Shown here in pieces: positions 1-63,112 of a stretch of DNA of 63,112 nucleotides (positions are counted from its first letter, which is position 1; every line of letters starts with the position of its first letter). Source of the DNA: a virus; the IMG/VR virus record IMGVR_UViG_3300044988_000895, positions 1 to 63,112 of that record, one strand, 5' to 3'. Position numbers and translations under genes: made by a program. Below the pieces are notes generated by a model. That model did no database searches and was not told the origin of the DNA. It was given only the letters and a program-made list of their open reading frames with translations.

Positions 1-760
1 ATGGTCCAAACTGAATTATGCTACAAAAATTAGGCAATGGACCAAAGTTTATGATCGTTGGTAATGTTGGTAATGGACCAAAACTAATTATCGTTGGTAT
101 GGTTAAAGGACCAAATGAAATAAGTGTTGGGCAAGTTAATGGACCAAAATTTATAAGACTACAAACAGGGAATGGACCAAAACTAATTATCGTTGGGAAT
201 GTTGGCATAGGTCCAAAAGTAATTATCGTTGGGAATGTTGGCAGTGGACCAAAAGTAATTATCGTTGGTAGTTTCAATGGTCCAAACTGGATTATGCTAC
301 AAAAATTAGGCAATGGACCAAAGTTTATAATTGTTGGCAATGTTGGTAGTGGACCAAAGGTAATTATCGTTGGGATATTAATTGGACCAAAGGTAATTAT
401 CGTTGGGAATGTTAATGGACCAAAACTAATAATTGTTGGTATATTTAAAGGACCAAATGAAATAAGTGTTGGGCATATAATTGGACCAAAGTTTATGATG
501 CTGCATACTGGAAATGGACCAAATTCAATCATAGTTGGGAATGTTGGAAAACTACTAATTACAATTGAAGGAAATGTTGGAAGAGGTCCAAAATCTATAA
601 TCGTTGGTAACTTAAGTGGACCAAAATTAATCGTACTACAAAAATTAGGTAAAGGACCGAAAGTAATTATCGTTGGAATTGGAGGATCTACAACAATAAT
701 TGATGGAATATTAATTGGACCTAATGGTCCAATGTCTAAACAAGGAAATACAATTGGTGG
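1..760 (-). repeat. PTII-x-FGPL coding repeat array with 276-bp higher-order period
   Basis: The core codes for units such as PTIITFGPL about every 30-36 bp. A higher-order repeat is visible: the block beginning tggtccaaactg at position 2 recurs at position 278, exactly 276 bp (92 codons) later, and a diverged third copy is seen near 625-660. Cys-containing units (NFCSII, VCSLI, TCPTLI) recur in the same order. This suggests expansion by segmental duplication of a beta-solenoid-like stretch. Confidence 0.8.
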
Positions 761-1600
761 TGGCTGAACATTAATTGTAGGCAAATTAATTGTAGGTATT
801 ATAAGTTGTGGTATATCTGGAATATTTGGAATTAAAAACTCTAAAGGTTGATTTGGAGTTTGTATATTAGGCTGCTTGGCTATCTCTCTTTCTGAAGGAC
901 TTTGCACAACAGTACATTGGTCTGTATTCACTTGAATCACAGGATCTATTGTGGTATTTGCTGCATAAACATGTGTGCCAGATAAATTAGTACTTGTAAA
1001 TTTACCATCACCGAAGTCGAGTCTGAAACTTTTATATGAACCAGTAATTTCAACATTATATGTTGCTATTGTTCCAGTTACTGGACTAATTGATGTGATT
1101 GCAAAAAAGAAAGTTACATCTGGACATGTGAAGTCGTCAAAAATCACTTCGAGTTCAGATAAATTTCTAATTCTCCAATCCAATGTTGTTTGATCTGTTG
1201 TAAAATTAAAACCAATAAAATTTTGAGTCTTTATAATTGCATCAGCAAGTTGATTGTGGTGTTCTGATACTACAAATCCTCTTATTTCCGATCCAGCATA
1301 ATTATATTTAGTTTTTGTTCCACCTAAATTTCTCGTGCAATTAGTTAATTTATAAACTTTACCATTATTGTTTTTTAATACACCGCCATAATAAAAAAGC
1401 TCTCCACTTATATTTGCATATCCATTGTTCGCCCAAATTTCATTTTCATCTGCATTAACAGGATAAATCTCGATGTTTGCTTCCCAAGGATGATTATCTG
1501 AGGTTGTTACGGTTTCACTGGTGTTATAAACCAAATACAAAGTACGATCAGTATCGTAATTTTTTGGATATACAGGAATTGGGGGGAAATTATTAGACAT
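1..1600 (-). CDS. PKD-like adhesin with PTII-x-FGPL repeats (3' end off window)
   Basis: The reading frame is open on the minus strand from an ATG at 1600 (MSNNFPPIPVYP) to the window edge, about 533 codons with no stop, so the C-terminus is missing. The N-terminal part has the motif SEHHNQLADAI, shared in type with the two upstream neighbours. It is followed by a PKD-like strand pattern ending in FRLDFGDGKF. From about residue 280 onward it becomes a repeat of 9-12 residue units of the form PTIIxFGPLP, with regularly placed PNFCSII and PVCSLI variants. Role: most likely a tail-fibre or adhesin protein at the baseplate tip, inferred from PKD folds and position. No known repeat family was recognised. 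An AAGAGAAG ribosome site and a TAAATA element precede the start. Confidence 0.85.
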   Translation of the reverse strand, partial: MSNNFPPIPVYPKNYDTDRTLYLVYNTSETVTTSDNHPWEANIEIYPVNADENEIWANNGYANISGELFYYGGVLKNNNGKVYKLTNCTRNLGGTKTKYNYAGSEIRGFVVSEHHNQLADAIIKTQNFIGFNFTTDQTTLDWRIRNLSELEVIFDDFTCPDVTFFFAITSISPVTGTIATYNVEITGSYKSFRLDFGDGKFTSTNLSGTHVYAANTTIDPVIQVNTDQCTVVQSPSEREIAKQPNIQTPNQPLEFLIPNIPDIPQLIIPTINLPTINVQPPPIVFPCLDIGPLGPINIPSIIVVDPPIPTIITFGPLPNFCSTINFGPLKLPTIIDFGPLPTFPSIVISSFPTFPTMIEFGPFPVCSIINFGPIICPTLISFGPLNIPTIISFGPLTFPTIITFGPINIPTIITFGPLPTLPTIINFGPLPNFCSIIQFGPLKLPTIITFGPLPTFPTIITFGPMPTFPTIISFGPFPVCSLINFGPLTCPTLISFGPLTIPTIISFGPLPTLPTIINFGPLPNFCSIIQFGP

Positions 1601-38188: not shown

Positions 38189-39649
38189 ATGAAAAATAGA
38201 TTTTCTGAATTCATGCAGATGAAAGAACAAGCAGAAGCAAAGCCTAATCGCATTGTTCCTTCTAAAATTAAACTTAGCAAAAATGATGGTGAATTTATGC
38301 CATTCAATGTTTCGAGGGGCAATAGATCAAATCTAAGAGTATTGATGAAAGCCTTTGAAATAAGCGATCAAATCGGTGTTGGCTATACAACAATCGATAA
38401 GGGTCGTGGAGAAATTGAACCAAAGCTTAAAAGAAAAACAATCCACTTAACTGGTGGTGCCGTAAGAGATCACTTAGCTGGTAAAACTCCAAGAGATTAC
38501 AACCTCGTAACTGATGCAACCGCCAGTGAAATTCGAATGATCCTAAAACATCCAGAAAATAATTTTGTTGAGGTTAAACCAGAAAACAAAGATAAATTTC
38601 AAAATAAATATAAAAATCTTCCAGAAGATTCAAATAGAAAAAAAACATTTTCTGTTTCTCGTTGGGACAAAAATGGAAAAGAAATGGCATTTAAAGTGAC
38701 GATTAATGGAGAAGATTTTGATTTATCCATTATGTCTAAATCTCCCAAAAGCAAATCGTATGATGCTGATTCTTTTGATGCTACTTCAGCTTTAGAAGAC
38801 GATGCAATGAATCGTGACTTCACAATTAATTCTATGTACATTCCATTGAATAATAGCGATGGAGATAATACAGAACTGATTGATCCATTTGGTGGCGCAC
38901 ATCATATAAAAAGTCGTGATCTAGTTAGTGTTAATGACGATTTTGAATCTCGATTTAACGAAGATCCATCAATTGCTATGCGTTTTGCTAAAATGACTTG
39001 CAAATATGGAAATGGTGAAAAACCATGTAAAAAGATTGTTTCTGTCATAAAAGGAAATGAAAAACTTAAAGATATTCCAAAAGATGTTTTCAAAAAAGAA
39101 TTCAATAGTGGATTAGAAGATTCTGGAATTGATACAAGAAAATATATTAAGTTGCTTGATAATCTAGGAATACTTCCATTGATTATGCCACAATATTCAA
39201 TTGATGATATGCAACCAAATATGAAGGGTGATCGCTGGCTAACACCAGCTTACATGCTTAGAAATTCAGATATGGATAATGTTATCGATGCTTTGGTTGA
39301 TAATGGATGGAGCAAAAGCGAAGCATCTGACATTTCTCATCTTATCAATCTTTATAAATGGGCAAAAAGCAGCTATGACCCAAGTATGTTTTATGATCTA
39401 AAACACACAAAATCTGGATTAACAAAATCTAAAATTGGCGATTGGATGAACATGAATGGATTTAAAGAACCTCATGTTAAATCATTCTTAGATCATGATG
39501 ACTCTGATTTAAAACCATATGTTGACACATTAATTGGTAAAAAAATAAATCCGTCTTACGCTGACTTCTTAGGACACAATCCTAAAGGCGAAGATTTTGA
39601 AAGAACAAAGAAATACCTTTCAACAAAAAGATTTTTAGACAATATTTAA
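38189..39649 (+). CDS. CCA-adding/poly(A) polymerase-family nucleotidyltransferase (486 aa)
   Basis: The head domain is clear: HLTGGAVRDHLAGKTPRDYN at residues 87-105, later EDDAMNRDFTINSMYI and LIDPFGGAHHIKSRDL, as in class II tRNA nucleotidyltransferases and PcnB. The second acid of the canonical D-x-D is Asn here (D103-Y-N105), which may lower or abolish catalysis. A long insert separates the head motifs. The N-terminus MKNRFSEFMQMKEQAE looks like a packaging signal. It lies before the helicase gene and near a tRNA gene without encoded CCA, so tRNA repair or RNA tailing are both possible. Confidence 0.75.
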   Translation: MKNRFSEFMQMKEQAEAKPNRIVPSKIKLSKNDGEFMPFNVSRGNRSNLRVLMKAFEISDQIGVGYTTIDKGRGEIEPKLKRKTIHLTGGAVRDHLAGKTPRDYNLVTDATASEIRMILKHPENNFVEVKPENKDKFQNKYKNLPEDSNRKKTFSVSRWDKNGKEMAFKVTINGEDFDLSIMSKSPKSKSYDADSFDATSALEDDAMNRDFTINSMYIPLNNSDGDNTELIDPFGGAHHIKSRDLVSVNDDFESRFNEDPSIAMRFAKMTCKYGNGEKPCKKIVSVIKGNEKLKDIPKDVFKKEFNSGLEDSGIDTRKYIKLLDNLGILPLIMPQYSIDDMQPNMKGDRWLTPAYMLRNSDMDNVIDALVDNGWSKSEASDISHLINLYKWAKSSYDPSMFYDLKHTKSGLTKSKIGDWMNMNGFKEPHVKSFLDHDDSDLKPYVDTLIGKKINPSYADFLGHNPKGEDFERTKKYLSTKRFLDNI

Positions 39650-39657
39650 AGGCAATT

Positions 39658-42504
39658 ATGATTAATTTTAAAAATTGGAAGCTTAATGTATTATTGGAAA
39701 ATACACAGGGAGAAATTTCTGGACCCGGAGTTGAACTCTTGCAGAAAACAGTAAGAGAAATGGCTGATAGAGGCGCACCTGTAGAAGATAATTTGAGTGG
39801 ATTTGGGAAACAGGATTGGTCTACATTCCAAGCTTTGGCTTCTGCTGGTTATGTGACTAGTAAAAGTATTCCAGTTCGTGTTGCATCGCAAATGTTAAAA
39901 CTTTTGTCTCATTATAAAAATACTCAAATTAACAATTACGAAGAAATAAGCAATTTGATTTATCAAGATATAAACAAAGATCAACCTCAAAGATCGACAG
40001 AAGAAAAAGAAAAAGTTAAAGTGTTTGACAGACAACCATTGGTTTATGGAAAAGTTAAAGTTTATATTCCTCATGGCGTTGATCGATCATTGACAATTGC
40101 AATCAATAAAATTGTAGACTCTGAATTCAAATCAGAAGGCGCACAAAAAGAAACAGACAAATTTGGAAATAATAATTATCCAAGATTTAAAAAATTTCAA
40201 CAAGACAAAAATTCTCTTCACATGTACCAAATACATGCAAGAATATTGCCACAAATTATTTCACTCCTAAGAGACAAAGGATATGAAATAGAAACCGAAA
40301 GCTCTAGACCATTACCATTTGATCAAGGTCAAAATAGAAGTCAACAAAGAACAGGTGAAGAAGAAACAAATAAATCACCTGTTGAAATTAAGGATAAGCC
40401 AGAAGAAAAAAAATCAGAAATTCAAGACAAACCAGCATTAGAACAATCTTTAGATGTAATTAGTTTCCAAAACCTTGGTGGAAATAAGATGAAGATTAAA
40501 ATAAATTACTCACAACTAAGCCAAGGTAAAAAACAATTCTTAAAAGAATCAATTCAATATACATTTCCAAGTTACGAATGGATTAAAGATGATTATTCAT
40601 ATATTGTTTCTGGATCATATAAACAATATGCTACATTTGGAAGATTACTCAAAAAATTCAATTACAATGTAGATAATCTTAGAAAAGTTTTTGGAGAAAA
40701 ATCTTCAAGCGGTGGTCTCGAAAGGACAAGATATGAAGGAAAGCATGATGAAGACGAAATCTTCATCAGCAAAATAGAGGAAAAACTACCAGAGAGTTCT
40801 TTTGATTTATATGACGCACAAAAAAAAGGTGTAGCATTTCTTTATGGTCGTGATCATGCAATTCTCGGTGACGAGACGGGACTTGGCAAAACCGTGCAGC
40901 TTGTTTCGGCAGCAGAAATTCGCATGCAAGAAACCAATAGACCTACTATCATCATTACCTTGAAGCCTGTCGTTAAACAGTGGATAAGCACAATTACAAG
41001 TGTTCTTGGCGATAATATCAGTGGAGAAATATCTACAGATGGTTTAAATCCTAAGAAATGGACAGTTTTATATTACGATAATTTCTCTAAAGGAAAAAAT
41101 TTAGAAGATATAGTTAAAAAACTATCAAATGAAAATTTTGGAATTGCCATACTTGATGAATTGCACAAAGTGAAACATGGAAAAGCAACTTGGAGTAAGA
41201 ATATAGCCAAAGTTGTTGCAAATATTCCGACAAGATGGGGAGCATCTGCGACTGTTTCATCGAACAAACCAATGGATGTAAAAAATCAACTTAAAATTAC
41301 TGGACATCATTTGGGAGATGTTGAAGAAAAGAAATTTAAAAGAGATTTCGCAGGAGAAAATGACAACTACGACCAATCTGGAAGAGATTCAGAAGAAAAA
41401 AAGATAGCTGCTGCAGAAAGATTGAATCGCTGGCTTAATCTTTCTGGTGTTTATGTTCGCAGATCAAAAAGCGATGTTCGTGAAATGCCAAATATTTCTG
41501 TTGGGCATGAAAAAACACAAATAAACCAAGACCAATTTGATTCTAAATACAAAACTAAGTTAAGTGGATATAAAAATCCAAATCTACCAGTATCAAAACT
41601 TATTGCCGCAAGAGAAACTGTAGCACAACTCAAAACTGATGATACAACAAAAAAAGTAATTCAAACTGTAACTAATGGATTAAAACAAGATAATCCAGCA
41701 GCTAGTAAAGTTGTTGTTTTTACAAATTTTGTGGAATCTGGAAACCAACTGGTTTATAAAATTTCAGAAGCTTTGAAAAATATCAATCCTAGCTTTTATG
41801 TTTTAACATATATGAGCGATACAAAGAAAAAAGAAAGAACGGCAGTTAAAGGTAAATTTACCGATGATGCCAACGCAAAAGTATTGATCATGTCGATGAA
41901 AATGGGCGGTACTGGTATCGATTTTCCAAATGCTGCTCAAAGCATGATTATCAATGACTTTGATTGGACACCAGAATCTGCAGAGCAAAGCGAAGGTAGA
42001 ATTTATCGAATCAATACCAACCATCCAGTAGATATAAAATATGTTGTTTCAAGTGGTATTGATAGTAAGCTATTTGAAAAAGTTCAACAAAAAAGAAAGA
42101 TTGCAAATATAATTCAACAATATCGTAAAGATTATCAAGATTCAGAACATGATCAAGAATCACTCAATAAAATTGTTCAAAAACAAAAAGAACTTAAAAG
42201 AATTGATGATGAAATGATTGATATAATCAATTCGGAACTTCCCGGTGCTGGTGAAGCTATGAAGGAATCTTTTAAAGACTTCATCGCAAATGATCAAATA
42301 CTTAGAGAGGAACTACTTTATGGTTTTTCTAGAGGATTCTCTATGCCTAATATCAGCGAATGGAGAGAAAAACATGTGCGGGATTACAAGCATGTTAAAC
42401 AAGGATTTGTTGCCGGAAATCCAAGGTATAGTGACAAAAAGATTGATAGTAAAAATCCAAAAAAGAGTAGAAATTTAGCAAAAAAAATTGATGCTAAAGA
42501 ATAA
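39658..42504 (+). CDS. SNF2-family helicase with packaging-signal-like N-terminus (948 aa)
   Basis: The C-terminal two thirds is an SNF2-type motor. It shows the Walker A box GDETGLGKT (residues 404-412), DELH (500-503), WGASATVSSNKP, and then the second lobe KVVVFTNFVESG, TYMSD, VLIMSMKMGGTGIDFPNA and SEGRIYRINTNHPV. The N-terminal 390 residues have no catalytic motif. They hold two similar small alpha/beta units (around 130-210 and 270-340), which may be HARP-like DNA-binding domains. The first residues, MINFKNWKLNVLLE, fit the capsid-targeting type, with LLE a possible cleavage site. The gene starts eight bases after the nucleotidyltransferase and is probably co-transcribed with it. Confidence 0.8.
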   Translation: MINFKNWKLNVLLENTQGEISGPGVELLQKTVREMADRGAPVEDNLSGFGKQDWSTFQALASAGYVTSKSIPVRVASQMLKLLSHYKNTQINNYEEISNLIYQDINKDQPQRSTEEKEKVKVFDRQPLVYGKVKVYIPHGVDRSLTIAINKIVDSEFKSEGAQKETDKFGNNNYPRFKKFQQDKNSLHMYQIHARILPQIISLLRDKGYEIETESSRPLPFDQGQNRSQQRTGEEETNKSPVEIKDKPEEKKSEIQDKPALEQSLDVISFQNLGGNKMKIKINYSQLSQGKKQFLKESIQYTFPSYEWIKDDYSYIVSGSYKQYATFGRLLKKFNYNVDNLRKVFGEKSSSGGLERTRYEGKHDEDEIFISKIEEKLPESSFDLYDAQKKGVAFLYGRDHAILGDETGLGKTVQLVSAAEIRMQETNRPTIIITLKPVVKQWISTITSVLGDNISGEISTDGLNPKKWTVLYYDNFSKGKNLEDIVKKLSNENFGIAILDELHKVKHGKATWSKNIAKVVANIPTRWGASATVSSNKPMDVKNQLKITGHHLGDVEEKKFKRDFAGENDNYDQSGRDSEEKKIAAAERLNRWLNLSGVYVRRSKSDVREMPNISVGHEKTQINQDQFDSKYKTKLSGYKNPNLPVSKLIAARETVAQLKTDDTTKKVIQTVTNGLKQDNPAASKVVVFTNFVESGNQLVYKISEALKNINPSFYVLTYMSDTKKKERTAVKGKFTDDANAKVLIMSMKMGGTGIDFPNAAQSMIINDFDWTPESAEQSEGRIYRINTNHPVDIKYVVSSGIDSKLFEKVQQKRKIANIIQQYRKDYQDSEHDQESLNKIVQKQKELKRIDDEMIDIINSELPGAGEAMKESFKDFIANDQILREELLYGFSRGFSMPNISEWREKHVRDYKHVKQGFVAGNPRYSDKKIDSKNPKKSRNLAKKIDAKE

Positions 42505-45418: not shown

Positions 45419-46039
45419 ATGTATAAAAAAATTAATGTCCACCCTTTGATCAAAACCAAACATGATGATTTATTCGAACAACCAGTAATTATTAGAGTGA
45501 GAAGATTTTCCGAGTCTTCTTGCGAAACTTTTACTGATCAAATCGATAAAGCTGTCAATTCTGGTCAACCATTCATTCCAATTGTAATCGATTCTTATGG
45601 AGGTCAAGTCTATAGTTTATTGGAAATGATCCAAAAAATGCAGCATTGTGGTCTTCCTTGCCACACAATAGTTGAAGGAAAGGCAATGTCTTGTGGTGCA
45701 ATTTTATTCGCCATGGGAAATCAAAGATATATGTCGCCACATGCCACACTCATGCTACATGAAGTTTCTTCGAATTCTTTCGGTAAAATAGAAGAAATTA
45801 AAGCAGATGCTAAAGAAACAGATAGACTCAATAAGTTGCTTTTCAAACTTATGGCAGAAAACTGTAAGAAAAAATACGACTTTTTCCTTAAACTAGTCCA
45901 CAATAGAAATCATGCGGACTGTTACATAACTGCCACAGAAGCAAAAAAACTTAACATTTGCACAGATATTGGCATACCAACTTTCAAGATTGATGTGAGT
46001 TTGAAATTTTCTTTGGAAAAATTCGGTAACAAGTATTGA
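45419..46039 (+). CDS. ClpP-like serine protease (S14 family)
   Basis: IVIDSYGGQVYSLLEMIQKM and GLPCHTIVEGKAMSCGA match the ClpP fold. The putative triad is Ser91 (in MSCGA), His114 (in LMLHEVS) and Asp183 (in NICTDIG). The Ser-His spacing is near that of ClpP, but the His-Asp spacing is about 20 residues longer, indicating an insert in the handle region. ClpP-type proteases are used by HK97-type phages for head maturation and by cells for regulated proteolysis. Here it has no capsid neighbours. It is translated directly after the glycosyltransferase-like gene. Confidence 0.75.
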   Translation: MYKKINVHPLIKTKHDDLFEQPVIIRVRRFSESSCETFTDQIDKAVNSGQPFIPIVIDSYGGQVYSLLEMIQKMQHCGLPCHTIVEGKAMSCGAILFAMGNQRYMSPHATLMLHEVSSNSFGKIEEIKADAKETDRLNKLLFKLMAENCKKKYDFFLKLVHNRNHADCYITATEAKKLNICTDIGIPTFKIDVSLKFSLEKFGNKY

Positions 46040-50525: not shown

Positions 50526-50533
50526 CATAAATA
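50526..50533 (+). promoter_or_regulatory. Late-promoter-like element CATAAATA, part of a duplicated 45-bp cassette
   Basis: CATAAATACTTCT resembles the extended T4 late sequence TATAAATACTATT. Only five bases lie between CATAAATA and the ATG, and no Shine-Dalgarno site exists. The same cassette, with one base change, occurs before the ADP-ribosyltransferase-like gene. Confidence 0.55.
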
Positions 50534-50538
50534 CTTCT

Positions 50539-51978
50539 ATGAACTTTAAACAGTGGCTGGAAAATGAAGAAGAAATAGATGTCAATGTATCTAAACCAAA
50601 TTTGGCGACAACTGTTCCTCCATTAAATACAAGTGCATCCAAACCAAAGTTAGGAATCAGACAGAATAAAAGTAAAGAAAAAGTAGAACAACTTGCATTA
50701 GATTACAAAAATAATGGATATTTTCCTAACGCAAAACATCCATTATTTGGACAATGGATTTCAGATAAAAGAACTGGAGATTCAATCATATATCCATCAG
50801 ATAGAGAAGCATGGAAAGATATGGTAGAATTATCTAAAAGTGAAAATTGGAAATATAAACTCCCAGAAACTCCACCATTTGAATTAGGTAGTGGACATCA
50901 AACCAAGCATAGCTATGCCATAAATAATAATATTAAAAATATTACTTCACGGGAAAATATTATAGAAAATAAAAGTAAAGAAAAGGTAGAACAACTTGCA
51001 TTATTTTACAAAAAAAATGGATATTTTCCTAACGCAAAACATCCATTATTTGGACAATGGATTTCAGATAAAAGAACTGGAGATTCAATCATATATCCAT
51101 CAGATAATATAAAATGGAAAGAGATGGTAGAATTATCTAAAAGTGAAAATTGGAAATATAAACTTCCAGAAACTTTACCATTTGAATACAATTACGAATA
51201 TGATTTAAAAAAACAAAGAAATAAAAGAATAGAAGATCTTGCAATATATTATAAAGACCGTGGAAAATTTCCTAATCCATATGACGAACATGATGAATTC
51301 GCTAGAAATCTTGGTCATTTTAGAATGGGAAATATTTACAAGAATAATATTTCCTCATCAGATAATATAAAATGGAAAGAGATGGTAGAATTATCTAAAA
51401 GTGAAAACTGGAAATATAAACTTCCAGATACATGGAACGAAATTCAAAAAAAAGGTGGCTCTTCTGGCGAGATATATATAAAAAATTTATTAGATTTTCT
51501 TAAAATTGAAAATTACACACAACACAAAGAAACATTTTGTGTTGATAAAAGATGTTTACGATTTGATTTTTCTATTGATCATAATAATCAAGATTATTTA
51601 GTAGAATATCAAGGCAAACAACATTATATTCCATCTTTTTTTGGTAAAACAAAAAATAAAAACCCTCAAAAAATAGCAGAAATTGCTCTTAAGGAATTCG
51701 ATAAAATTAAAAAAAGAGACGAAATAAAATACGATTATTGTTTGAAGGAAAAGCTTCCACTTCTTGTGATTCCATATTGGTTTGATAAAGGTGGTATTAA
51801 AGAATTAATCGAAAAATTTATAAAAGAAGATGAATTTAGCACAATTTTTGCAAATCCACCTGTTCCAGATGATAAAAAAGAATATCACGACAGAATGTAT
51901 AAAAAATATTTAGCAGAATCAAAACCAACATTTGAACAATTTCTAATTGGGAAGAACTTTACATATTTTAATGCATAA
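50539..51978 (+). CDS. Nuclease with helicase-associated-type DNA-binding repeats and packaging signal (479 aa)
   Basis: The N-terminus MNFKQWLENEEEID is a capsid-targeting-like signal. Three repeats of about 110 residues follow, each with LALxYKxxGYFPN then LFGQWISDKR-like and KWKEMVELSKSENWKYKLPE-like segments. They recall the helicase-associated (HA) DNA-binding domain. The C-terminal domain (about 320-440) has GEIYIKNLLDFL, CLRFDFSID, DYLVEYQGKQHY and YDYCLKEKLPLLVIPY, the pattern of a PD-(D/E)XK/Vsr-like nuclease with the acidic and QxH residues in place. A packaged nuclease attacking host or rival DNA, or a homing-type enzyme, would fit. Confidence 0.7.
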   Translation: MNFKQWLENEEEIDVNVSKPNLATTVPPLNTSASKPKLGIRQNKSKEKVEQLALDYKNNGYFPNAKHPLFGQWISDKRTGDSIIYPSDREAWKDMVELSKSENWKYKLPETPPFELGSGHQTKHSYAINNNIKNITSRENIIENKSKEKVEQLALFYKKNGYFPNAKHPLFGQWISDKRTGDSIIYPSDNIKWKEMVELSKSENWKYKLPETLPFEYNYEYDLKKQRNKRIEDLAIYYKDRGKFPNPYDEHDEFARNLGHFRMGNIYKNNISSSDNIKWKEMVELSKSENWKYKLPDTWNEIQKKGGSSGEIYIKNLLDFLKIENYTQHKETFCVDKRCLRFDFSIDHNNQDYLVEYQGKQHYIPSFFGKTKNKNPQKIAEIALKEFDKIKKRDEIKYDYCLKEKLPLLVIPYWFDKGGIKELIEKFIKEDEFSTIFANPPVPDDKKEYHDRMYKKYLAESKPTFEQFLIGKNFTYFNA

Positions 51979-51981
51979 ATA
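51974..51981 (+). promoter_or_regulatory. Late-promoter-like element CATAAATA, second cassette copy
   Basis: It overlaps the stop codon of the nuclease gene and lies five bases before the ATG of the ADP-ribosyltransferase-like gene, again without Shine-Dalgarno site. From here the 45-bp block differs by one base from the copy at 50526. Confidence 0.55.
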
Positions 51982-51986
51982 CTTCT

Positions 51987-52586
51987 ATGAACTTTAAACA
52001 GTGGATGGAAAATGAAGATTACAGAGGAACACATCAAGCTCCAGATAAAGAAGATGCTCCACTTCATGACTTGACCAACACTTATCCAGATGATATCTAT
52101 TCCGATAAAGGTGCTTTGTACTATGGCGATTCTTCACCATTTGATCAGCAATCTATTAGCATTATAAAGTCTGCAAGAGGCAAACCTAATCTAGCAGTTA
52201 AAATATTTAGAGCAGTTCCAGATATCAATAAAGAAACTAATAAACAAATTAAATACTATTACAGCTTAATCTATTATGTAAATCAATTTGGATTTCCACC
52301 AATCGCATCTAAAGATAAGTTCGCCAGTGAATTATATCAAAAGTTGAACTATGATAAAAATAAATTCGTTGAACATTTAAACAATGAAATTAAACAACTT
52401 GAAAATAAAATAGAAAAGAAAATTACAATCAATCCGGGAGATTGGGTTTCGATAAATAGACAATATGCAGTTGATCATGGACAAGCTCATGTAGATAATT
52501 ATAAGATCTTATCCAAAACTGTAAAAGCTAAAGAACTATTTACAGACGGCAATAGTATTCACGAATGGGGTTACGATCCAAGATGA
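51987..52586 (+). CDS. ART-PolyVal-like ADP-ribosyltransferase with packaging signal (199 aa)
   Basis: After the signal-like MNFKQWMENEDYRG, the domain shows VKIFRAVPD (with the probable catalytic Arg), INPGDWVSINRQYAVDHG, and the closing LFTDGNSIHEWGYDP (with the probable Glu). This order is that of the ART-PolyVal group (R-S-E ADP-ribosyltransferase fold) found in mobile-element polyvalent proteins. In T4 the comparable packaged enzyme, Alt, modifies host RNA polymerase right after injection. The downstream phosphoesterase start overlaps its stop (ATGA). Confidence 0.75.
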   Translation: MNFKQWMENEDYRGTHQAPDKEDAPLHDLTNTYPDDIYSDKGALYYGDSSPFDQQSISIIKSARGKPNLAVKIFRAVPDINKETNKQIKYYYSLIYYVNQFGFPPIASKDKFASELYQKLNYDKNKFVEHLNNEIKQLENKIEKKITINPGDWVSINRQYAVDHGQAHVDNYKILSKTVKAKELFTDGNSIHEWGYDPR

Positions 52587-53122
52587 AAAACATATTTTTA
52601 ATTGCTGACACACATTTTGGCGATCAAAAATTATGCAATTTGGAATCTTCAGATGGAAAAAAATATCGACCTTGGAATAAATCATCAGATATGGATGAAG
52701 ACTTAATTCGTAAATGGAACGAAGTTGTTGGTAAAAATGACCTTGTTTATCACCTTGGTGATGTTTCAACTCAAAAAGAAAAATTAAAACTATTAAGAAA
52801 ATGTAATGGAGAAAAAATCCTTATAAAAGGAAATAGAGATAATTTCAAACTTATTCATTACACTACTTATTTTTCAGATATCAGATCGTATTATCAAATT
52901 GATAAATTAATTTTAACCCATGTTCCTTTGTTTCCAGCTTGCATTAAAACTGGAAAAATTAATGTACATGGTCATTTACATAAACAAGAAATTAAACATA
53001 TAAAGTATTTAAATGTGTGTGTTGAAAACATAAATTATACGCCCATTTCTATTGATGATATCAAAGTAAAAACAGGCGAAAACGAATTTAATTCTTTATT
53101 GTTCAAATATAAAACTAGCTGA
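52583..53122 (+). CDS. Calcineurin-like metallophosphoesterase (179 aa)
   Basis: The metal-binding motifs are all in order: FLIADTHFGD, YHLGDVST, LIKGNRDN, THVPLFP and NVHGHLHK, as in the small calcineurin-like phosphoesterases. Such enzymes cleave phosphomono- or diesters of nucleotides, nucleic acids or proteins. The ATG at 52583 was preferred to one six codons upstream because of the ATGA overlap with the preceding ADP-ribosyltransferase gene. Coupling may mean that it acts on a product of the transferase, such as a nucleotide or ADP-ribose, which is inference. Confidence 0.85.
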   Translation: MKNIFLIADTHFGDQKLCNLESSDGKKYRPWNKSSDMDEDLIRKWNEVVGKNDLVYHLGDVSTQKEKLKLLRKCNGEKILIKGNRDNFKLIHYTTYFSDIRSYYQIDKLILTHVPLFPACIKTGKINVHGHLHKQEIKHIKYLNVCVENINYTPISIDDIKVKTGENEFNSLLFKYKTS

Positions 53123-53798: not shown

Positions 53799-54125
53799 CT
53801 ATTTTTGACCAAAACTCGTCCTAGCTTGAGATGGATCATTCCACCATGTAGAATCATCAGACTTTTTCTTAATTTCTGCCATAATGATTTTATCTAATTC
53901 ATTTAATTTGGCATATGACTTACCAGCTACCATCAAATCTACCCTATAATCATTAGCTTCTTTGTCTTTTCCATCTAACTTCAAACGAATGTATGGAGTC
54001 AATAAGTTAAGAGGAAACATAGGAAAACTTTTAGACATGCTGTCTATAAAATCACCATGAAGCAAAGGATTCCTATGAAACTTAGGGTCAAACAAACCTT
54101 CTAAATATTGCATAAATGTTTTCAT
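53799..54125 (-). CDS. Hypothetical protein with packaging-signal-like N-terminus (108 aa)
   Basis: The first residues, MKTFMQYLEGLFDP, compare closely with MKTYQEFIAEA of the T4 internal proteins. The rest is mostly helical (FPLNLLTPYIRLKLDGKDKE, LNELDKIIMAEIKKK), with no known motif. It has TAAATA four bases before the ATG and lacks a Shine-Dalgarno site, as do the cassette genes. Confidence 0.6.
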   Translation of the reverse strand: MKTFMQYLEGLFDPKFHRNPLLHGDFIDSMSKSFPMFPLNLLTPYIRLKLDGKDKEANDYRVDLMVAGKSYAKLNELDKIIMAEIKKKSDDSTWWNDPSQARTSFGQK

Positions 54126-55066: not shown

Positions 55067-55264
55067 TCAAATAGGTTTGACATATCTAATTTCAGCTATG
55101 CCATTAAATTTAATTTCTGCTTCTGTTGCTACTCTAACAGCATCATCTTTACTTTCATAAAGACCAAAATAATTTAGTTTATCATTTATCCACACTCTTA
55201 CATCCCACCTGTGGTATTTATTTTTATGAACATAACTAAGCCAATTTGAGTAATTATTTTTCAT
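55067..55264 (-). CDS. AP2-domain remnant of an HNH endonuclease (65 aa)
   Basis: WDVRVWINDKLNYFGLYESKDDAVRVATEAEIKFNG is an AP2-like DNA-binding domain, the same as at the end of the four endonucleases upstream. The HNH part is absent. Its start overlaps the upstream stop by four bases (ATGA), so it is still read as the last gene of the unit. It may be a truncated copy or a free regulator. Confidence 0.65.
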   Translation of the reverse strand: MKNNYSNWLSYVHKNKYHRWDVRVWINDKLNYFGLYESKDDAVRVATEAEIKFNGIAEIRYVKPI

Positions 55265-55824
55265 TCATCTCTCCCAAATTCACCATGAAGTTTCTTTCGT
55301 GCAGCTATAGCCACCTTAATTGCATCTTCTTTGTTGTCAAAATAACCAAAAGAATAAGATTTATTATCTTTGTAAATTCTTACTACCCATTTGCCAACTC
55401 TTTTATTCCAATAGACTCCTTTATGTCCAGATGTGTTGTTTTTTTGTATTTTACGATTTCGTTGATTTTGATCAGGCGTTGTTTCTCTGATGTTATCGAT
55501 ACTGTTATTTAATGAATTTACATCTTCATGATCTACTTGTTTGCCTTCTGTCAAATAGCCATTATGTAAAAGAAATATAACTCTACTACATGTAACAAAA
55601 TAAGGTTTTCCATTATAGGTAATATTAATCATCCATCTTCTATATCCATCTTTAGCATGAGTGTGTATATAACCAGCACTCTTATTGGCAAATCTGGTGT
55701 TCCATCGCAAATTTTTTCTAGGAAGCCAAATTAAGCCAGATGTACTAGATGAACTAGTGGAATCTATCTTCAAAATAGATCGAATGTATTTTAATGGAAT
55801 ACCTTGTATAGAATTTCGTTTCAT
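55261..55824 (-). CDS. HNH-AP2 endonuclease, copy 4 (187 aa)
   Basis: N-terminal module SIQGIPLKYIRSILKID, then an HNH core (VDHEDVNSLNNSIDNIRE) and the C-terminal AP2 domain (KGVYWNKRVGKWVVRIY). This is the layout of mobile phage HNH endonucleases that nick at specific sites. All key residues remain, although the usual ADG before N is EDV here. It is one of four coupled copies with ATGA junctions. Confidence 0.8.
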   Translation of the reverse strand: MKRNSIQGIPLKYIRSILKIDSTSSSSTSGLIWLPRKNLRWNTRFANKSAGYIHTHAKDGYRRWMINITYNGKPYFVTCSRVIFLLHNGYLTEGKQVDHEDVNSLNNSIDNIRETTPDQNQRNRKIQKNNTSGHKGVYWNKRVGKWVVRIYKDNKSYSFGYFDNKEDAIKVAIAARKKLHGEFGRDE

Positions 55825-56384
55825 TTATCTCTCCCAAATTCGCCATGATATTTCTTTCTAGCTTCTTCAATGGCTTTTTTGGCATTTTCTTTTTCTGATT
55901 TCAAAAAATAACCAATATGTATTTTTTTGTAATTTACATACAATTTAGCTTCCCATTTTTGTCTTTTTTCATCCCAAGAAAGACCTTTTGTTCCAGAAGT
56001 GTTGTTTTTCCTCAACTTGCTATTTTGAGAATTTTGTGATTGGGTTGCTTCTCTTAAATTTTCGATTGAATTGTCTAATGATTTATTAGTGGCATGATCC
56101 ACCACTTTATCATCTGTCAAATAACCATTATGTAAAAGGAAAACAACTCTGCTGCATTTTATGTCGTGCTTTTTATCGTTATAGCGAATTGTGCATTTCC
56201 AGCTTTCGTAACCACGATTATCTGTATATAGATATCCAGCATGCTTGTTGGCATGTTTGGTGTTCCATGATTTTGTTCCATCTTCTCTTGGAAGCCATGT
56301 CAATTCAGAAGGAGAAGTTAGATCTATCTTCAATATAGATTGAATATACTCCAAAGGTATGCCTTGTATAGAAGTTAGTTTCAT
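55821..56384 (-). CDS. HNH-AP2 endonuclease, copy 3 (187 aa)
   Basis: The same layout as its neighbours. The HNH core VDHATNKSLDNSIENLRE has changed residues (ATN in place of ADG), and the AP2 domain (KGLSWDEKRQKWEAKLY) is intact. It is the most diverged of the four and has one extra stretch (FLKSEKENAKKAIEEA) in the last helix. Confidence 0.78.
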   Translation of the reverse strand: MKLTSIQGIPLEYIQSILKIDLTSPSELTWLPREDGTKSWNTKHANKHAGYLYTDNRGYESWKCTIRYNDKKHDIKCSRVVFLLHNGYLTDDKVVDHATNKSLDNSIENLREATQSQNSQNSKLRKNNTSGTKGLSWDEKRQKWEAKLYVNYKKIHIGYFLKSEKENAKKAIEEARKKYHGEFGRDK

Positions 56385-56944
56385 TTATCTCTCCCAAATT
56401 CACCATGAAGTTTTTTTCTAGCTTCTATAGCTACCTTGATTGCATCTTCTTTATTCACATAAAGACCAAAGTAATATGATTTACCAAATGCAGATATTTG
56501 TACTCTCCATTTTCTGCTATTTTTATCCCAAAAAACATCTTTGTGTCCAGAAGTGTTATTTTTTGGAATTTTGCTGTTCTGATTATTTTGGTCTTTGGTT
56601 ACTTCTCTTAAATTATCAACATTGTTGTTTAAAGAATTGCCATCAGCATGATCAATATCTTTTCCTTCGGTTAGATATTTATTATGTAAAAGAAATACAA
56701 TTCTACTGCATCGTAAGTCATATTTTTTCCCATTATAGGAAATACTTACTACCCATCTTTGATATCCCTTTTTTTTGTTGGTGTGCTTATAGCCAGCCAT
56801 TTTATTTGCATAATATAAATTGAATCTTCCACATTCTCTTGGAAGCCAAATTAAGCCAGATGTACTAGATGAACTAGTGGAATCTATCTTCAATATAGAT
56901 TGAATATACTCTAAAGGTATACCTTGTATGGAAGTTAGTTTCAT
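56381..56944 (-). CDS. HNH-AP2 endonuclease, copy 2 (187 aa)
   Basis: HNH core IDHADGNSLNNNVDNLRE and AP2 domain (KDVFWDKNSRKWRVQIS) are complete. The N-terminal SILKIDSTSSSSTSGLIWLP block is nearly the same as in copy 4, so these two share a recent ancestor or have exchanged sequence. Confidence 0.8.
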   Translation of the reverse strand: MKLTSIQGIPLEYIQSILKIDSTSSSSTSGLIWLPRECGRFNLYYANKMAGYKHTNKKKGYQRWVVSISYNGKKYDLRCSRIVFLLHNKYLTEGKDIDHADGNSLNNNVDNLREVTKDQNNQNSKIPKNNTSGHKDVFWDKNSRKWRVQISAFGKSYYFGLYVNKEDAIKVAIEARKKLHGEFGRDK

Positions 56945-57477
56945 TCATCTCTCCCAAATTCACCATGAAGTTTCTTTCGTGCAGCAATAGCCACCTCGAT
57001 TGCATCTTCTAGTTTTTCATGAAGACCAAAATTTTGTAATTTTCCATTCAGTCGTATTCTCACTTCCCATTTCCCGCTTGCTTTATGCCAAAAAATTCCT
57101 TTATGACCAGAAGTGTTATTTTTTGGCACTTTGCTGTTGTGCATGTTTTCGGAATGCGAAGATTCCCTGAGATTTTCAGAATTGTTGTTCAATGAATCAC
57201 CATCAGCATGATCTACTTCCTTGTCTGGATCTAACTCTTTTTCTTTTAACAGCAATACAATGCGATGAACTATTAGGTCATGTCTTTTGCCGTTATAAGG
57301 CACTTTCATGACCCAATATTTCTTTCCAGTCAGAACTCCCTTTTCCTTATAAGCCTTCAAAGTGCCAGCAACTCCAGATTTTTTTATCCAAGTCAATCCA
57401 GATGGACTAGTAGAATTTATTTTTAATATAGATTGAATATAGGATAGAGGAATGCCTTGTATGGAAGGGAGTTTCAT
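56941..57477 (-). CDS. HNH-AP2 endonuclease, copy 1 (178 aa)
   Basis: First of the array. HNH core VDHADGDSLNNNSENLRE and AP2 domain (KGIFWHKASGKWEVRIR). A shorter linker of nine residues less than the others follows the N-terminal module. Its start overlaps the preceding hypothetical gene by four bases, so the whole array is read from a promoter further upstream. Confidence 0.8.
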   Translation of the reverse strand: MKLPSIQGIPLSYIQSILKINSTSPSGLTWIKKSGVAGTLKAYKEKGVLTGKKYWVMKVPYNGKRHDLIVHRIVLLLKEKELDPDKEVDHADGDSLNNNSENLRESSHSENMHNSKVPKNNTSGHKGIFWHKASGKWEVRIRLNGKLQNFGLHEKLEDAIEVAIAARKKLHGEFGRDE

Positions 57478-59241: not shown

Positions 59242-60012
59242 TCACTCCGATAATCTCTTATTGATTATCTCAAGATAGGTTGGTTCTTTTTCTATAAGAA
59301 TATAATTGCGATTTAATTCCTTTGCCACTTTACCTACCGTTCCACTTCCTGCAAAGGGATCAAGAATTGTATCACCTTCATTACTCCAACTGATAATATG
59401 ATCGTGAACTAACTTTTCTGGAAATGGAGAATTATGCTTTCCTGTATTAGCACCAGTCTTTGTCGGCATAAACCAAATGTTGTAAAGATATTTAGTGTCT
59501 TTGACAACAACACCATCATCTCTTTTTCTCATCGAAAAATTCCACTCAAATTGTTTTTCTGATTTGTGATTATTGCTGTTGCCAGCAGTCTTTGTCGGAA
59601 CCCTTATAGGATTGAAAGTCTTTGGTCTTCCTTTAGAGAAAACAAACATATACTCAAATTGCTGCTCGTATCTATTGTGATTTAATGGAATTGGATTCTG
59701 CTTCGCATATATCATCGTATCATGTAAAAGGAATCCTACTTCTTTAAAATATAATGCTTGCTTAAATGATGTTCCTGTCTCACTACCTTTAATTGATGAA
59801 TCGCCAACTACCCAAACTACTACACCACCATCCTTCATTATCCTAAATAATATATCAATTGCACCCTTCCAAACATGCTCACCCCAATCTAAACTACCAT
59901 TATATGACCTCAAATTGTCGTAAGGAGGAGAAGTCAAAACCATATCAATACTCTTGTCAGATATCCTTGTCATAACATCCAAACAATCACCAATTATCAC
60001 TTCATTATTCAT
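59242..60012 (-). CDS. DNA N4/N6 methyltransferase (TSPPY type), 256 aa
   Basis: TSPPYDNLRSY at residues 27-37 and the S-adenosylmethionine loop DPFAGSGTVGK starting near residue 218 show the catalytic motif preceding the cofactor motif, which is the beta-class order. It methylates cytosine N4 or adenine N6 in DNA. No restriction partner is present nearby, so it is a solitary phage methylase, probably protecting phage DNA from host restriction. The start overlaps the preceding gene by four bases. Confidence 0.88.
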   Translation of the reverse strand: MNNEVIIGDCLDVMTRISDKSIDMVLTSPPYDNLRSYNGSLDWGEHVWKGAIDILFRIMKDGGVVVWVVGDSSIKGSETGTSFKQALYFKEVGFLLHDTMIYAKQNPIPLNHNRYEQQFEYMFVFSKGRPKTFNPIRVPTKTAGNSNNHKSEKQFEWNFSMRKRDDGVVVKDTKYLYNIWFMPTKTGANTGKHNSPFPEKLVHDHIISWSNEGDTILDPFAGSGTVGKVAKELNRNYILIEKEPTYLEIINKRLSE

Positions 60013-60362: not shown

Positions 60363-60428
60363 GTTAAACCCTCAATAAATGAATATTACTATTTACAAAT
60401 TAAACAATAAAAATTATCATACAAAAAA

Positions 60429-60472
60429 TCAAGAGGAATACTTATGTCAATCAAGAGGAATACTTATGTCAA
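60429..60472 (+). repeat. 22-bp tandem duplication of ribosome site and start codon
   Basis: tcaagaggaatacttatgtc (plus aa) is present twice without gap. Each unit has an agaggaa ribosome site and an ATG. Only the second ATG (60466) is in the frame of the methylase. The first opens a 32-codon frame overlapping the methylase start. Confidence 0.9.
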
Positions 60473-61323
60473 TATTGCATGGATGTTGTATCGAAATACT
60501 CAAAACATTAGAAGAAAAATCTGTTCACTCTTGCGTAACTAGCCCACCTTACTTCGGTCTCAGAGATTATGGAGTAAAAGGACAGATTGGACTCGAAATA
60601 ACTCCAGAAGAATATGTAAGCAAAATATTAGAAGTATTCTCCGAAGTCAAAAGAGTTCTTCGTGATGATGGCACACTTTGGCTCAACCTTGGTGACTCCT
60701 ATGCTCAAAATCAATCAGCAGGAGATAGAGTCACAAAATATTCTCCAAAACAAAAAACAAGCAAAGGAACATATTCATCGGAAGTAAAATGTCCTGTTGG
60801 ATATAAAGTTAAAGACCTAATTGGAATTCCGTGGATGGTTGCCTTTGCACTTCGTTCAGATGGATGGTATCTGCGTCAAGATATCATTTGGCACAAACCA
60901 AATCCAATGCCAGAAAGCGTTACAGATCGTTGTACCAAATCACATGAATATATCTTCCTTCTATCCAAATCCCCTAAATATCACTTCGACCATGAAGCCA
61001 TAAAAGAAAAAGGCGTTATGTCAAAAGGTGATTCTGCCGAACTGGAAGAAAAAGGATATAACACTCGCAACAAAAGATCTGTATGGATTGTTAACACCAA
61101 ACCTTTTAAAGAAGCTCATTTCGCTACATTCCCCATAGATCTCATAGAACCTTGTATTCTTGCAAGCTGTCCAGAAAATGGAACTGTACTCGATCCATTC
61201 TTCGGTGCTGGTACTACTGGCATCGTTTGTATTAAAAATAAAAGAAATTACATTGGTATTGAACTAAACCAAGATTATATCGATATAGCTAAAAAAAGAA
61301 TAAGTGATTTCACTACTATTTAA
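60466..61323 (+). CDS. DNA methyltransferase (TSPPY type), tandem copy 1 (285 aa)
   Basis: TSPPYFGLRDYG at residues 25-36, LWLNLGDSY, the HKPNPMPESVTDRCTKSHEY segment, and the C-terminal DPFFGAGTTGIV make a complete beta-class DNA methylase. The start at 60466 was chosen because the next gene begins with the same MSILHGCCIEIL and because of the ribosome site. It is a close paralogue of the gene that follows and differs mainly in the central target-recognition region. Confidence 0.88.
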   Translation: MSILHGCCIEILKTLEEKSVHSCVTSPPYFGLRDYGVKGQIGLEITPEEYVSKILEVFSEVKRVLRDDGTLWLNLGDSYAQNQSAGDRVTKYSPKQKTSKGTYSSEVKCPVGYKVKDLIGIPWMVAFALRSDGWYLRQDIIWHKPNPMPESVTDRCTKSHEYIFLLSKSPKYHFDHEAIKEKGVMSKGDSAELEEKGYNTRNKRSVWIVNTKPFKEAHFATFPIDLIEPCILASCPENGTVLDPFFGAGTTGIVCIKNKRNYIGIELNQDYIDIAKKRISDFTTI

Positions 61324-61362
61324 CACTTCATAAAGTTTTGACCTTTAGACAAAAGGAATATT

Positions 61363-62277
61363 ATGTCAATATTGCATGGATGTTGTATCGAAATACTCAA
61401 AACATTAGAAGAAAAATCTATCCACTCTTGCGTAACTAGCCCACCTTACTTCGGTCTCAGAGATTATGGCACAAAAGGACAGATTGGACTCGAAACAACT
61501 CCAGAAGAATATATAAGTAAAATCTTAGCGGTATTCTCCCAAGTCAAAAGAGTCCTTCGTGATGATGGCACACTTTGGCTCAATCTTGGCGACTCCTATT
61601 GGAATAATTTTGGTGGTGGTTCCTCTACCATGACCACTGGTAACTCCCAAGCAGTCAAAACCAGAGGAAGATCAAATAAACCTAAACACTCCTATCTGAA
61701 AATAAAAGACCTTATAGGCATACCTTGGCTCGTTGCTTTAGCTCTCCAAAAAGATGGCTGGTATCTAAGACAGGACATCATTTGGCATAAACCCAATAGC
61801 CTTCCAGAAAGCGTAACTGATAGATGCTCTAAATCACACGAATATATCTTCCTTCTATCCAAATCCCCTAAATACTACTTCGATAATAAATCAATCAAAG
61901 TTCCTATGTCCGCCAATAGCACACCTTCTAAGTCTGTTCGTGGCAAAAACCCATCTAGTAATGCACCTATAGGTCAACCTAATCAACTAGGAAGCGGTAG
62001 CCGTGGATGTGATGATGGTCTGGTAAACAAAAGATCTGTATGGACTGTTACTACCAAGCCCTTTAAAGAAGCTCATTTTGCTACATTCCCTATAGATCTA
62101 ATAGAACCTTGTATTCTTGCAGGTTGTCCAGAAAACGGAACTGTACTCGATCCATTCTTCGGTGCTGGTACTACTGGCATTGTTTGTATTAAAAATAAAA
62201 GAAATTATCTTGGCATAGAATTAAACCAAGATTATATAAATATCGCTAAAAAAAGAATAAGTGATTTCACTACATAA
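61363..62277 (+). CDS. DNA methyltransferase (TSPPY type), tandem copy 2 (304 aa)
   Basis: Nearly the same as copy 1 in the catalytic and cofactor parts (TSPPYFGLRDYG, DPFFGAGTTGIV). It has a longer and different middle segment: a Gly/Ser/Thr-rich block (NNFGGGSSTMTTGN), and further inserts before RSVWTVTTKP. That region should set target choice, so the two copies probably methylate different sequences. An aaaaggaat ribosome site precedes the ATG. Confidence 0.88.
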   Translation: MSILHGCCIEILKTLEEKSIHSCVTSPPYFGLRDYGTKGQIGLETTPEEYISKILAVFSQVKRVLRDDGTLWLNLGDSYWNNFGGGSSTMTTGNSQAVKTRGRSNKPKHSYLKIKDLIGIPWLVALALQKDGWYLRQDIIWHKPNSLPESVTDRCSKSHEYIFLLSKSPKYYFDNKSIKVPMSANSTPSKSVRGKNPSSNAPIGQPNQLGSGSRGCDDGLVNKRSVWTVTTKPFKEAHFATFPIDLIEPCILAGCPENGTVLDPFFGAGTTGIVCIKNKRNYLGIELNQDYINIAKKRISDFTT

Positions 62278-62303: not shown

Positions 62304-63112
62304 ATGAATAATTTTAGCTTTAAACAATTCATAGAAAACAAAGATCTTAACGAAGTTGGACAACATGTCTTTCCAGATGATAAAAACGATCCCACTTACA
62401 ATAAACCATTTCATAACAGTACTGTAAAACAAGTAGAAGATGGTGGATATGCAGATACTGAAAATAAATTTTCTAGTGACATGCCTGTATTTAAAATTAA
62501 AAGTATAAAAAATGGAATTGAAGTCGAATTAGGCGGAATGATAAAAAGTAGACTTCTTACAGTTAGTGGTGCTGGTCATAATACTGATCCACGAACTGGA
62601 CAGGGGATGAATCAAGGTGGACAGTCTTTCGATTACAAATATGATAAACCCAAGGAAACCATATGGCCAAATCATCCCGATATAACAGGTTTTTATAAGG
62701 GAATTGGAAAAGATGGCACATCTAATCGTTTTGATTCTTTGCATAATCCCAAACCACAAGAAACCAATTACACCATTGATATTATTTTAAAAAGCATGAT
62801 GAAAGTTGCTGCTCAAATAATCATTGATAATCATCAATACAATCGAATTATAAGTTTTAAGCCTGTTTTTGATTGGCTACAAAATCCACGCAAAGATCGG
62901 CCAGAGTTTGAAACTAGAATTGCCTTGATGTACACCACTTTGGACAAAGGTCTTAAGATGATTATTAGGGAAGCAAGCAAAAAAATCAATACTGGCGATA
63001 AAAAATATACCTTAGAAAAAGTTGGACACGACATACACATATCTTCAGGAAGCCCTCTTGACCTTCGATTAGATAAAAATACAGATGATTATGATAAGGC
63101 TATAGCTGGCGA
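62304..63112 (+). CDS. Hypothetical protein with packaging-signal-like N-terminus (3' end off window)
   Basis: An ATG at 62304 with an aataaggaat ribosome site opens a frame of about 269 codons to the edge. The N-terminus MNNFSFKQFIENKDLNEV fits the capsid-targeting type, with LNE (residues 15-17) as a possible processing site. The body (SGAGHNTDPRTGQGMNQGG, then helical IIIDNHQYNRIISFKPVFDW) shows no known motif. Its relation to the nearby methylases is unknown. Confidence 0.7.
   Translation, partial: MNNFSFKQFIENKDLNEVGQHVFPDDKNDPTYNKPFHNSTVKQVEDGGYADTENKFSSDMPVFKIKSIKNGIEVELGGMIKSRLLTVSGAGHNTDPRTGQGMNQGGQSFDYKYDKPKETIWPNHPDITGFYKGIGKDGTSNRFDSLHNPKPQETNYTIDIILKSMMKVAAQIIIDNHQYNRIISFKPVFDWLQNPRKDRPEFETRIALMYTTLDKGLKMIIREASKKINTGDKKYTLEKVGHDIHISSGSPLDLRLDKNTDDYDKAIAG

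What the first reader, a model, noticed from the sequence alone, without database searches (positions are those of the whole stretch)
51987..53122. ART-PolyVal-like ADP-ribosyltransferase coupled to a phosphoesterase
The R-S-E type domain (KIFRAVP, GDWVSINRQYA, NSIHEWGYDP) follows a packaging-like signal, and its stop overlaps the start of a calcineurin-like phosphoesterase. This could be an injected modifier of host machinery, similar in logic to T4 Alt but from a different ADP-ribosyltransferase lineage. The partner might recycle or reverse its products.
Basis: partly seen in the sequence, partly recalled or inferred. Interest (0 to 1): 0.6.

Follow-up and report, generated by a model that had tools for sequence, protein, structure and literature searches.

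The report
Packaged phage ADP-ribosyltransferase, unnamed family
A phage gene encodes a small enzyme that probably uses NAD to modify bacterial molecules, and it carries an N-terminal tag, shared with unrelated neighbouring genes, that resembles the signal phage T4 uses to load proteins into its head for injection; the phosphoesterase gene beside it looks like a chance neighbour.

Summary
The protein belongs to a large, almost purely viral domain family (PHROG 2579, labelled "ParB C-terminal domain") with no matching Pfam or NCBIfam model. A confident AlphaFold model of an insert-free relative is matched, in the VIA second look, almost only by ADP-ribosyltransferases (Tpt1/KptA, TreX, Vis, cholera toxin A, Certhrax, ExoS), at low Z (4.7 or less). 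Arg75 and Glu193 are invariant; the "S" is T, S or A. It is not ART-PolyVal: PF18760 matches other stretches of the same giant proteins. The packaging signal is supported: 19 of 35 standalone relatives start with a T4-capsid-targeting-like tag, unrelated neighbours share it, some genes lie directly behind gp20-21-22-23, and in close relatives tagged genes tend to carry a TATAAATA-like motif before the ATG. Other relatives are fused to a MuF head protein or giant polyvalent proteins. The phosphoesterase coupling is not conserved. Best reading: a virion-delivered ART, T4-Alt-like in logic, from a lineage not named in the sources I searched. Target and NAD use are untested.

The parts
51987..52586 (+). 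ART-like protein, 199 aa, PHROG 2579 family; domain core residues ~11-199
   Evidence: models; fold matches
51987..52016 (+). N-terminal capsid-targeting-like tag MNFKQWMENE (compare T4 IPII/IPIII MKTYQEFIAE, translated)
   Evidence: same tag on the upstream gene at 50539
51974..51981 (+). CATAAATA, T4-late-promoter-like motif 5 nt before the ATG; CATAAATACTTCTATGAACTTTAAACAGTGG is identical before and into gene 50539
52032..52034 (+). codon of invariant His16
52209..52211 (+). codon of invariant Arg75 (KIFRAVP), predicted NAD-binding Arg
   Evidence: end-to-end alignment ranges with cholera toxin A and ExoS
52224..52421 (+). helical hairpin insert (residues ~80-145), absent from many relatives
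52449..52451 (+). codon of Ser155 (GDWVS); T, S or A across the family
52563..52565 (+). codon of invariant Glu193 (SIHEWGY), predicted catalytic Glu; residue -2 is not E or Q
50539..51978 (+). 479-aa tagged nuclease-like protein (similar to phage intron/homing nucleases in its C-terminal part), ends 8 nt before the ART; probable co-cargo
   Evidence: PHROG 559 E 2.4e-16, 7140 E 1.6e-12; tag and upstream motif
50526..50533 (+). CATAAATA motif before the nuclease gene
52583..53122 (+). calcineurin-like metallophosphoesterase (preferred start 52583); GNRD where the classical motif is GNHD; no tag; judged an unlinked neighbour
53799..54125 (-). 108-aa protein with tag MKTFMQYLE; possible further cargo
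62304..63112 (+). protein with tag (M)NNFSFKQFIEN, runs off the window; N-terminus resembles the tagged gene two upstream of the ART in L045

Best explanation
The gene makes an ADP-ribosyltransferase-fold effector that is made late, carried into the phage head by its N-terminal targeting tag (alongside a tagged nuclease and other tagged proteins), and delivered into the next host with the DNA, where it probably uses NAD+ to modify a host macromolecule. Shown here by computation: membership of a viral domain family with invariant Arg and Glu; a confident predicted fold whose structural matches are ARTs; a T4-CTS-like tag shared with unrelated neighbours; head-operon placement and MuF or polyvalent fusions in relatives. 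Inferred: late expression, packaging and injection of this protein, NAD+ use and catalysis. Unknown: the target. The phosphoesterase is translationally overlapped but most likely an unrelated neighbour.
For: Fold: model of relative L013, pLDDT 92.8, pTM 0.85. VIA second look: the rows are Tpt1/KptA (Z up to 4.7, 69-75 aligned), TreX, Vis, cholera toxin A, Certhrax and ExoS, plus CNFy. By the end-to-end ranges, model R75 falls at cholera toxin A residue 7 and ExoS 319, and E130 (window E193) at cholera toxin A 112, ExoS 381 (one of three ExoS rows), Certhrax 431 and Vis 191, residue numbers I know as catalytic (own knowledge; read from range ends, not from a residue alignment). R and E invariant in 65 sequences. 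Tag: T4 IPII/IPIII MKTYQEFIAE against MKTFKQFIKE, MYTFKQFITE, MKTYTEFLSE and MNFKQWMEN in relatives; 19 of 35 standalone relatives fit an aromatic-x-x-aromatic-hydrophobic pattern, 13 with Glu at the T4 processing position. In the window 7 of 65 ORFs carry it, against 0.68 in shuffles (0 of 2000 reached 7) and 4 of 414 internal Met. Residues 4, 7, 8 and 10 of the T4 CTS govern targeting and processing (PMC9026906). Placement: directly after portal-protease-scaffold-major capsid genes in L074 and kin, between major capsid and tail tube in L104 and L108, among several tagged genes beside a baseplate wedge gene in L095. Fusions: MuF (L005), polyvalent proteins. Motif before the ATG: 8 of 26 tagged against 2 of 106 untagged ORFs in five records, Fisher P 3e-5. 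Against 190 confirmed relatives in viral contigs, only 6 in one genome each of 84,980 prokaryote species.
Against: No significant sequence match to any ART in Pfam, NCBIfam, PDB or T4 Mod/Alt. Fold Z is low and Foldseek itself gave no PDB match with E below 0.39. The residue two before the Glu is mostly I, not the E or Q of characterised protein ARTs. Tag position 10 is N, not E, in the window, so T4-type processing is doubtful. No T4-type prohead protease or major capsid family was found in the window or in the contigs of L044, L045 and L131, though all are fragments. In VH7D the homolog lies between regA and the DNA polymerase gene, and the Eureka one in a stretch of small genes without head genes. 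The tag regex and motif were chosen after looking.
Confidence: 0.66

Rival explanations
1. An ART made and used inside the infected cell, like T4 ModA/ModB, not packaged; the tag is an N-terminal leader of these phages without a role in packaging.
For: VH7D homolog lies between regA and the DNA polymerase gene; Eureka gp128 lies among small genes; window tag lacks Glu at the processing position; no head genes in the window.
Against: Shared tag on unrelated neighbours and its match to T4 IPII/IPIII; head-operon placement in L074, L104 and L108; MuF and polyvalent fusions. T4 ipI, ipII, ipIII and alt themselves lie outside the head operon, so position alone is weak.
Confidence: 0.2
2. ART and phosphoesterase form a functional pair (modifier and eraser, or toxin and antidote).
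For: ATGA overlap implies translational coupling; phosphoesterases of the same PHROG lie about 1 kb and 2.4 kb downstream in L001 and phage 1.081.O.
Against: A close ART relative has no adjacent phosphoesterase (80% identical, L001) and none was found near those at 54% and 51% (L044, L045); the phosphoesterases at 70-71% have no ART within about 6 kb of sequence held; 1912 against 159 phage records; the phosphoesterase lacks the tag; L001's copy is only 25% identical over 103 residues.
Confidence: 0.07
3. An ART-fold protein acting on nucleic acid or a small molecule, or as an NADase, rather than on proteins (compatible with packaging).
For: Best structural rows are tRNA 2'-phosphotransferases; no E or Q at the -2 position; invariant His16 and aromatic residues; polyvalent neighbours include pyrophosphatase, GGDEF and AAA domains.
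Against: Tpt1 belongs to the H-H-h clade, not Arg-Glu; nothing here tests the substrate.
Confidence: 0.35
4. ParB C-terminal domain, as annotated in PHROGs and RefSeq phage records.
For: PHROG 2579 label; RefSeq names.
Against: The predicted fold matches ARTs; no ParB model in Pfam or NCBIfam matches.
Confidence: 0.03

Closest known systems
T4 Alt (head-packaged mono-ADP-ribosyltransferase)
   Same: ART-type enzyme with proposed head packaging and injection; short N-terminal propeptide logic
   Different: Alt is 682 aa and another ART family; no detectable sequence relation to the Mod/Alt profile (weak 3-sequence profile); different leader (MELITELFDE)
T4 internal proteins IPI-IPIII with capsid targeting sequence
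   Same: about 10-residue N-terminal tag of nearly the same pattern on unrelated cargo proteins
   Different: T4 IPs are GmrSD inhibitors (PMC12373910), not ARTs; the window tag lacks Glu at position 10
ART-PolyVal (PF18760), Tox-ART-HYD2 type ARTs of polyvalent proteins
   Same: same giant phage proteins, same proposed delivery
   Different: separate domain in the same polypeptides; H-Y-D against R-[ST]-E; no PF18760 match to this family
MuF-ART fusions (Alt/VIP2 and N4-ART, PMC9503650)
   Same: L005 fuses this domain to a MuF minor head protein
   Different: a family not named in that survey as read here (sections and passages read only)
PHROG 2579
   Same: the protein is a member (E 4e-34)
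   Different: the label 'ParB C-terminal domain' is not supported

Membership tests
ADP-ribosyltransferase superfamily | ART fold | tested here: inconclusive
   Nearly all VIA rows are ARTs but Z is 4.7 or less and Foldseek E 0.8 or worse for the insert-free model
ADP-ribosyltransferase superfamily | NAD+ binding and transfer | not testable with these tools
   needs an assay
R-S-E clade of ARTs | Arg on the first strand | tested here: met
   Arg invariant, 65 of 65, on predicted strand 70-78
R-S-E clade of ARTs | Ser/Thr (STS-like) on the next core strand | tested here: inconclusive
   T 48, S 12, A 5 of 65; no STS triad
R-S-E clade of ARTs | catalytic Glu, usually E/Q-x-E | tested here: inconclusive
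   Glu invariant, but the -2 residue is I, H, W, L, V or M
ART-PolyVal (PF18760) | match to the Pfam model | tested here: not met
   no match in any of the 23 A1 members at E up to 1; model matches other stretches of the same proteins
ART-PolyVal (PF18760) | H-Y-D active site (PMC5512222) | tested here: not met
   Arg and Glu are the invariant residues at the corresponding places
T4 Alt/Mod family | sequence relation to Alt, ModA, ModB | tested here: inconclusive
   hhalign probability 0.04%, but the T4 profile has 3 sequences
T4-type capsid-targeted internal proteins | aromatic residues at CTS positions 4 and 7, hydrophobic at 8 | tested here: met
   window F3-x-x-W6-M7, the same spacing one residue earlier; 19 of 35 standalone relatives
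T4-type capsid-targeted internal proteins | Glu at processing position 10 | tested here: not met
   window has N; met in 13 of 35 relatives
T4-type capsid-targeted internal proteins | presence in the virion | not testable with these tools
   needs proteomics
Calcineurin-like metallophosphoesterase (52583-53122) | DxH, GD, GN[H]D, H, GHxH metal-site motifs | tested here: met
   DTH, GD, GN, H, GHLH present; GNHD reads GNRD; PF00149 above gathering score
PHROG 2579 | profile match | tested here: met
   E 4e-34

The most novel reading that the evidence does not exclude
An undescribed ART family, nearly exclusive to phages and spread across T4-like, MuF-type and polyvalent-protein phages, is delivered in virions as part of a modular cargo set whose genes share an N-terminal tag and, in one lineage, a common late-promoter-like motif, so that the tag can be used to read out a phage's injected arsenal from sequence.
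Probability: 0.45. Interest if true: 0.65.

Novelty: new variant of a known kind. Interest (0 to 1): 0.5.

Why it matters
If true, a common phage family now carried in databases under a label the fold does not support would become a testable ART effector family, and the shared tag would give a sequence-only way to list proteins that environmental myophages inject. It also separates a plausible effector from a neighbouring phosphoesterase that looks coupled but is not linked to it in relatives.

Tried and rejected
Direct sequence searches against Pfam, NCBIfam and PDB found no ART; the weak Ribosomal_S13 and zinc-finger matches fall mainly in the helical insert and were discounted. Foldseek against viral models found the same family but no informative names. 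hhalign to T4 Mod/Alt gave nothing (poor profile). ART-phosphoesterase linkage tested from both sides and not supported. TATAAATA over the whole window is not enriched (7 against 9 expected); only its position before tagged genes is. Searches for papers describing this family, or late promoters before internal-protein genes, gave nothing that settles it. T4-type gp21/gp23 not found in the window or its nearest relatives, which are fragments.

Full report
What is there. The window is a 63-kb virus record, a fragment, carrying tail genes with a 3980-aa tape-measure-like ORF. The ORF at 51987-52586 encodes 199 aa with all three quoted motifs. Its stop overlaps a metallophosphoesterase start; ATG 52583 is preferred over 52565 because the 70-71% identical relatives begin there.

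Family. Sequence libraries give only PHROG 2579, labelled ParB C-terminal domain. Scans of viral contigs confirmed 36 and then 190 relatives (80 kept), while 84,980 prokaryote species yielded 6. Among 96 distinct ORFs in hand, 43 are 260 aa or shorter and 53 are longer, up to 4146 aa on the DNA held. In 65 diverse sequences H12, R75, W89, Y96, H100 and E130 (L013 numbering; window H16, R75, W153, Y160, H164, E193) are invariant. Many members lack the helical insert of the window protein.

Fold. The window model is good (pLDDT 87) but its insert hairpin dominates searches. The model of the insert-free relative L013 reaches pLDDT 92.8. Foldseek gives no significant PDB match. In the VIA second look, which can only re-rank Foldseek candidates, the rows are tRNA 2'-phosphotransferases, TreX, Vis, cholera toxin A, Certhrax and ExoS, plus CNFy. 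Z never exceeds 4.7, so a single row means little; that nearly all rows are one superfamily is the argument. Range ends place the invariant Arg and Glu at residue numbers I recall as catalytic in several of these enzymes; this is inference from ranges, not a residue alignment.

Not ART-PolyVal. PF18760 matches other, non-overlapping stretches of the giant proteins of L016, L076, L097 and L101, and the polyvalent ARTs are described with an H-Y-D site (PMC5512222).

Delivery. T4 IPII and IPIII start MKTYQEFIAE; residues 4 and 7 of that leader govern targeting and 8 and 10 processing (PMC9026906). Relatives start MKTFKQFIKE, MYTFKQFITE, MKTYTEFLSE; 19 of 35 standalone members fit the pattern and 13 have the Glu. 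Unrelated neighbours in the same loci carry the same kind of leader: 24 of 401 ORFs against 0.4 in shuffles over 26 loci, the ART genes themselves included, and 7 of 65 against 0.68 in the window. In L074 and kin the gene follows portal, protease, scaffold and major capsid genes; in L104 and L108 it sits between major capsid and tail tube genes (L108) or just behind both (L104). L005 fuses it to MuF. In the window lineage tagged genes more often have CATAAATA just before the ATG, 8 of 26 against 2 of 106, and the nuclease and ART genes share an identical stretch there. The pattern and motif were set after inspection, so the P value is indicative.

Weak points. The window tag has N at the processing position; T4-type protease and capsid families were not found in the window or in the contigs of L044, L045 and L131, all fragments (L055's contig gave a partial capsid match); VH7D places its homolog beside replication genes, although T4 ipI, ipII, ipIII and alt are also outside the head operon.

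Phosphoesterase. PHROG 547 type, in 1912 phage records against 159 for the ART. A scan of the ART loci found this phosphoesterase type near the gene only in the window, L001 and phage 1.081.O, and the nearest phosphoesterase relatives have no ART in the sequence held. I treat it as an unlinked neighbour. Its GNHD motif reads GNRD.

Conclusion. A virion-delivered ART-fold effector from a family I did not find named elsewhere is the best reading; NAD use, target and packaging of this particular protein remain untested.

Noticed in passing
55261-57477 (-): Four tandem paralogs of 178-187 aa, each opening with a near-identical ...SIQGIPL.YI.SILKI leader; they look like HNH/homing-type proteins by eye.
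   Followed up: no
60379-62277 (+): Two adjacent, very similar DNA methyltransferase-like ORFs (314 and 304 aa); a third methyltransferase-like ORF lies at 59242-60012 (-).
   Followed up: no
38189-42504 (+): Tagged tRNA-nucleotidyltransferase-like protein followed by an SNF2-type helicase whose N-terminus is also tag-like; possible further cargo.
   Followed up: partly
45419-46039 (+): ClpP-like protein matching a head maturation protease PHROG (phrog_94, E 6e-23); a ClpP-like ORF also occurs in L001 at 564-1247.
   Followed up: partly
18-767 (+): Strongly repetitive ORF (GPKLIIVGNVGNGPK units), possibly an antisense reading of a repetitive tail gene.
   Followed up: no
L104:5115-5459, L095:4714-5442, L001:3764-4300, L072:828-1655: Other tagged neighbours contain YRG, YHGT or FHGT-like stretches that look ART-like by eye; no Pfam match.
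   Followed up: partly
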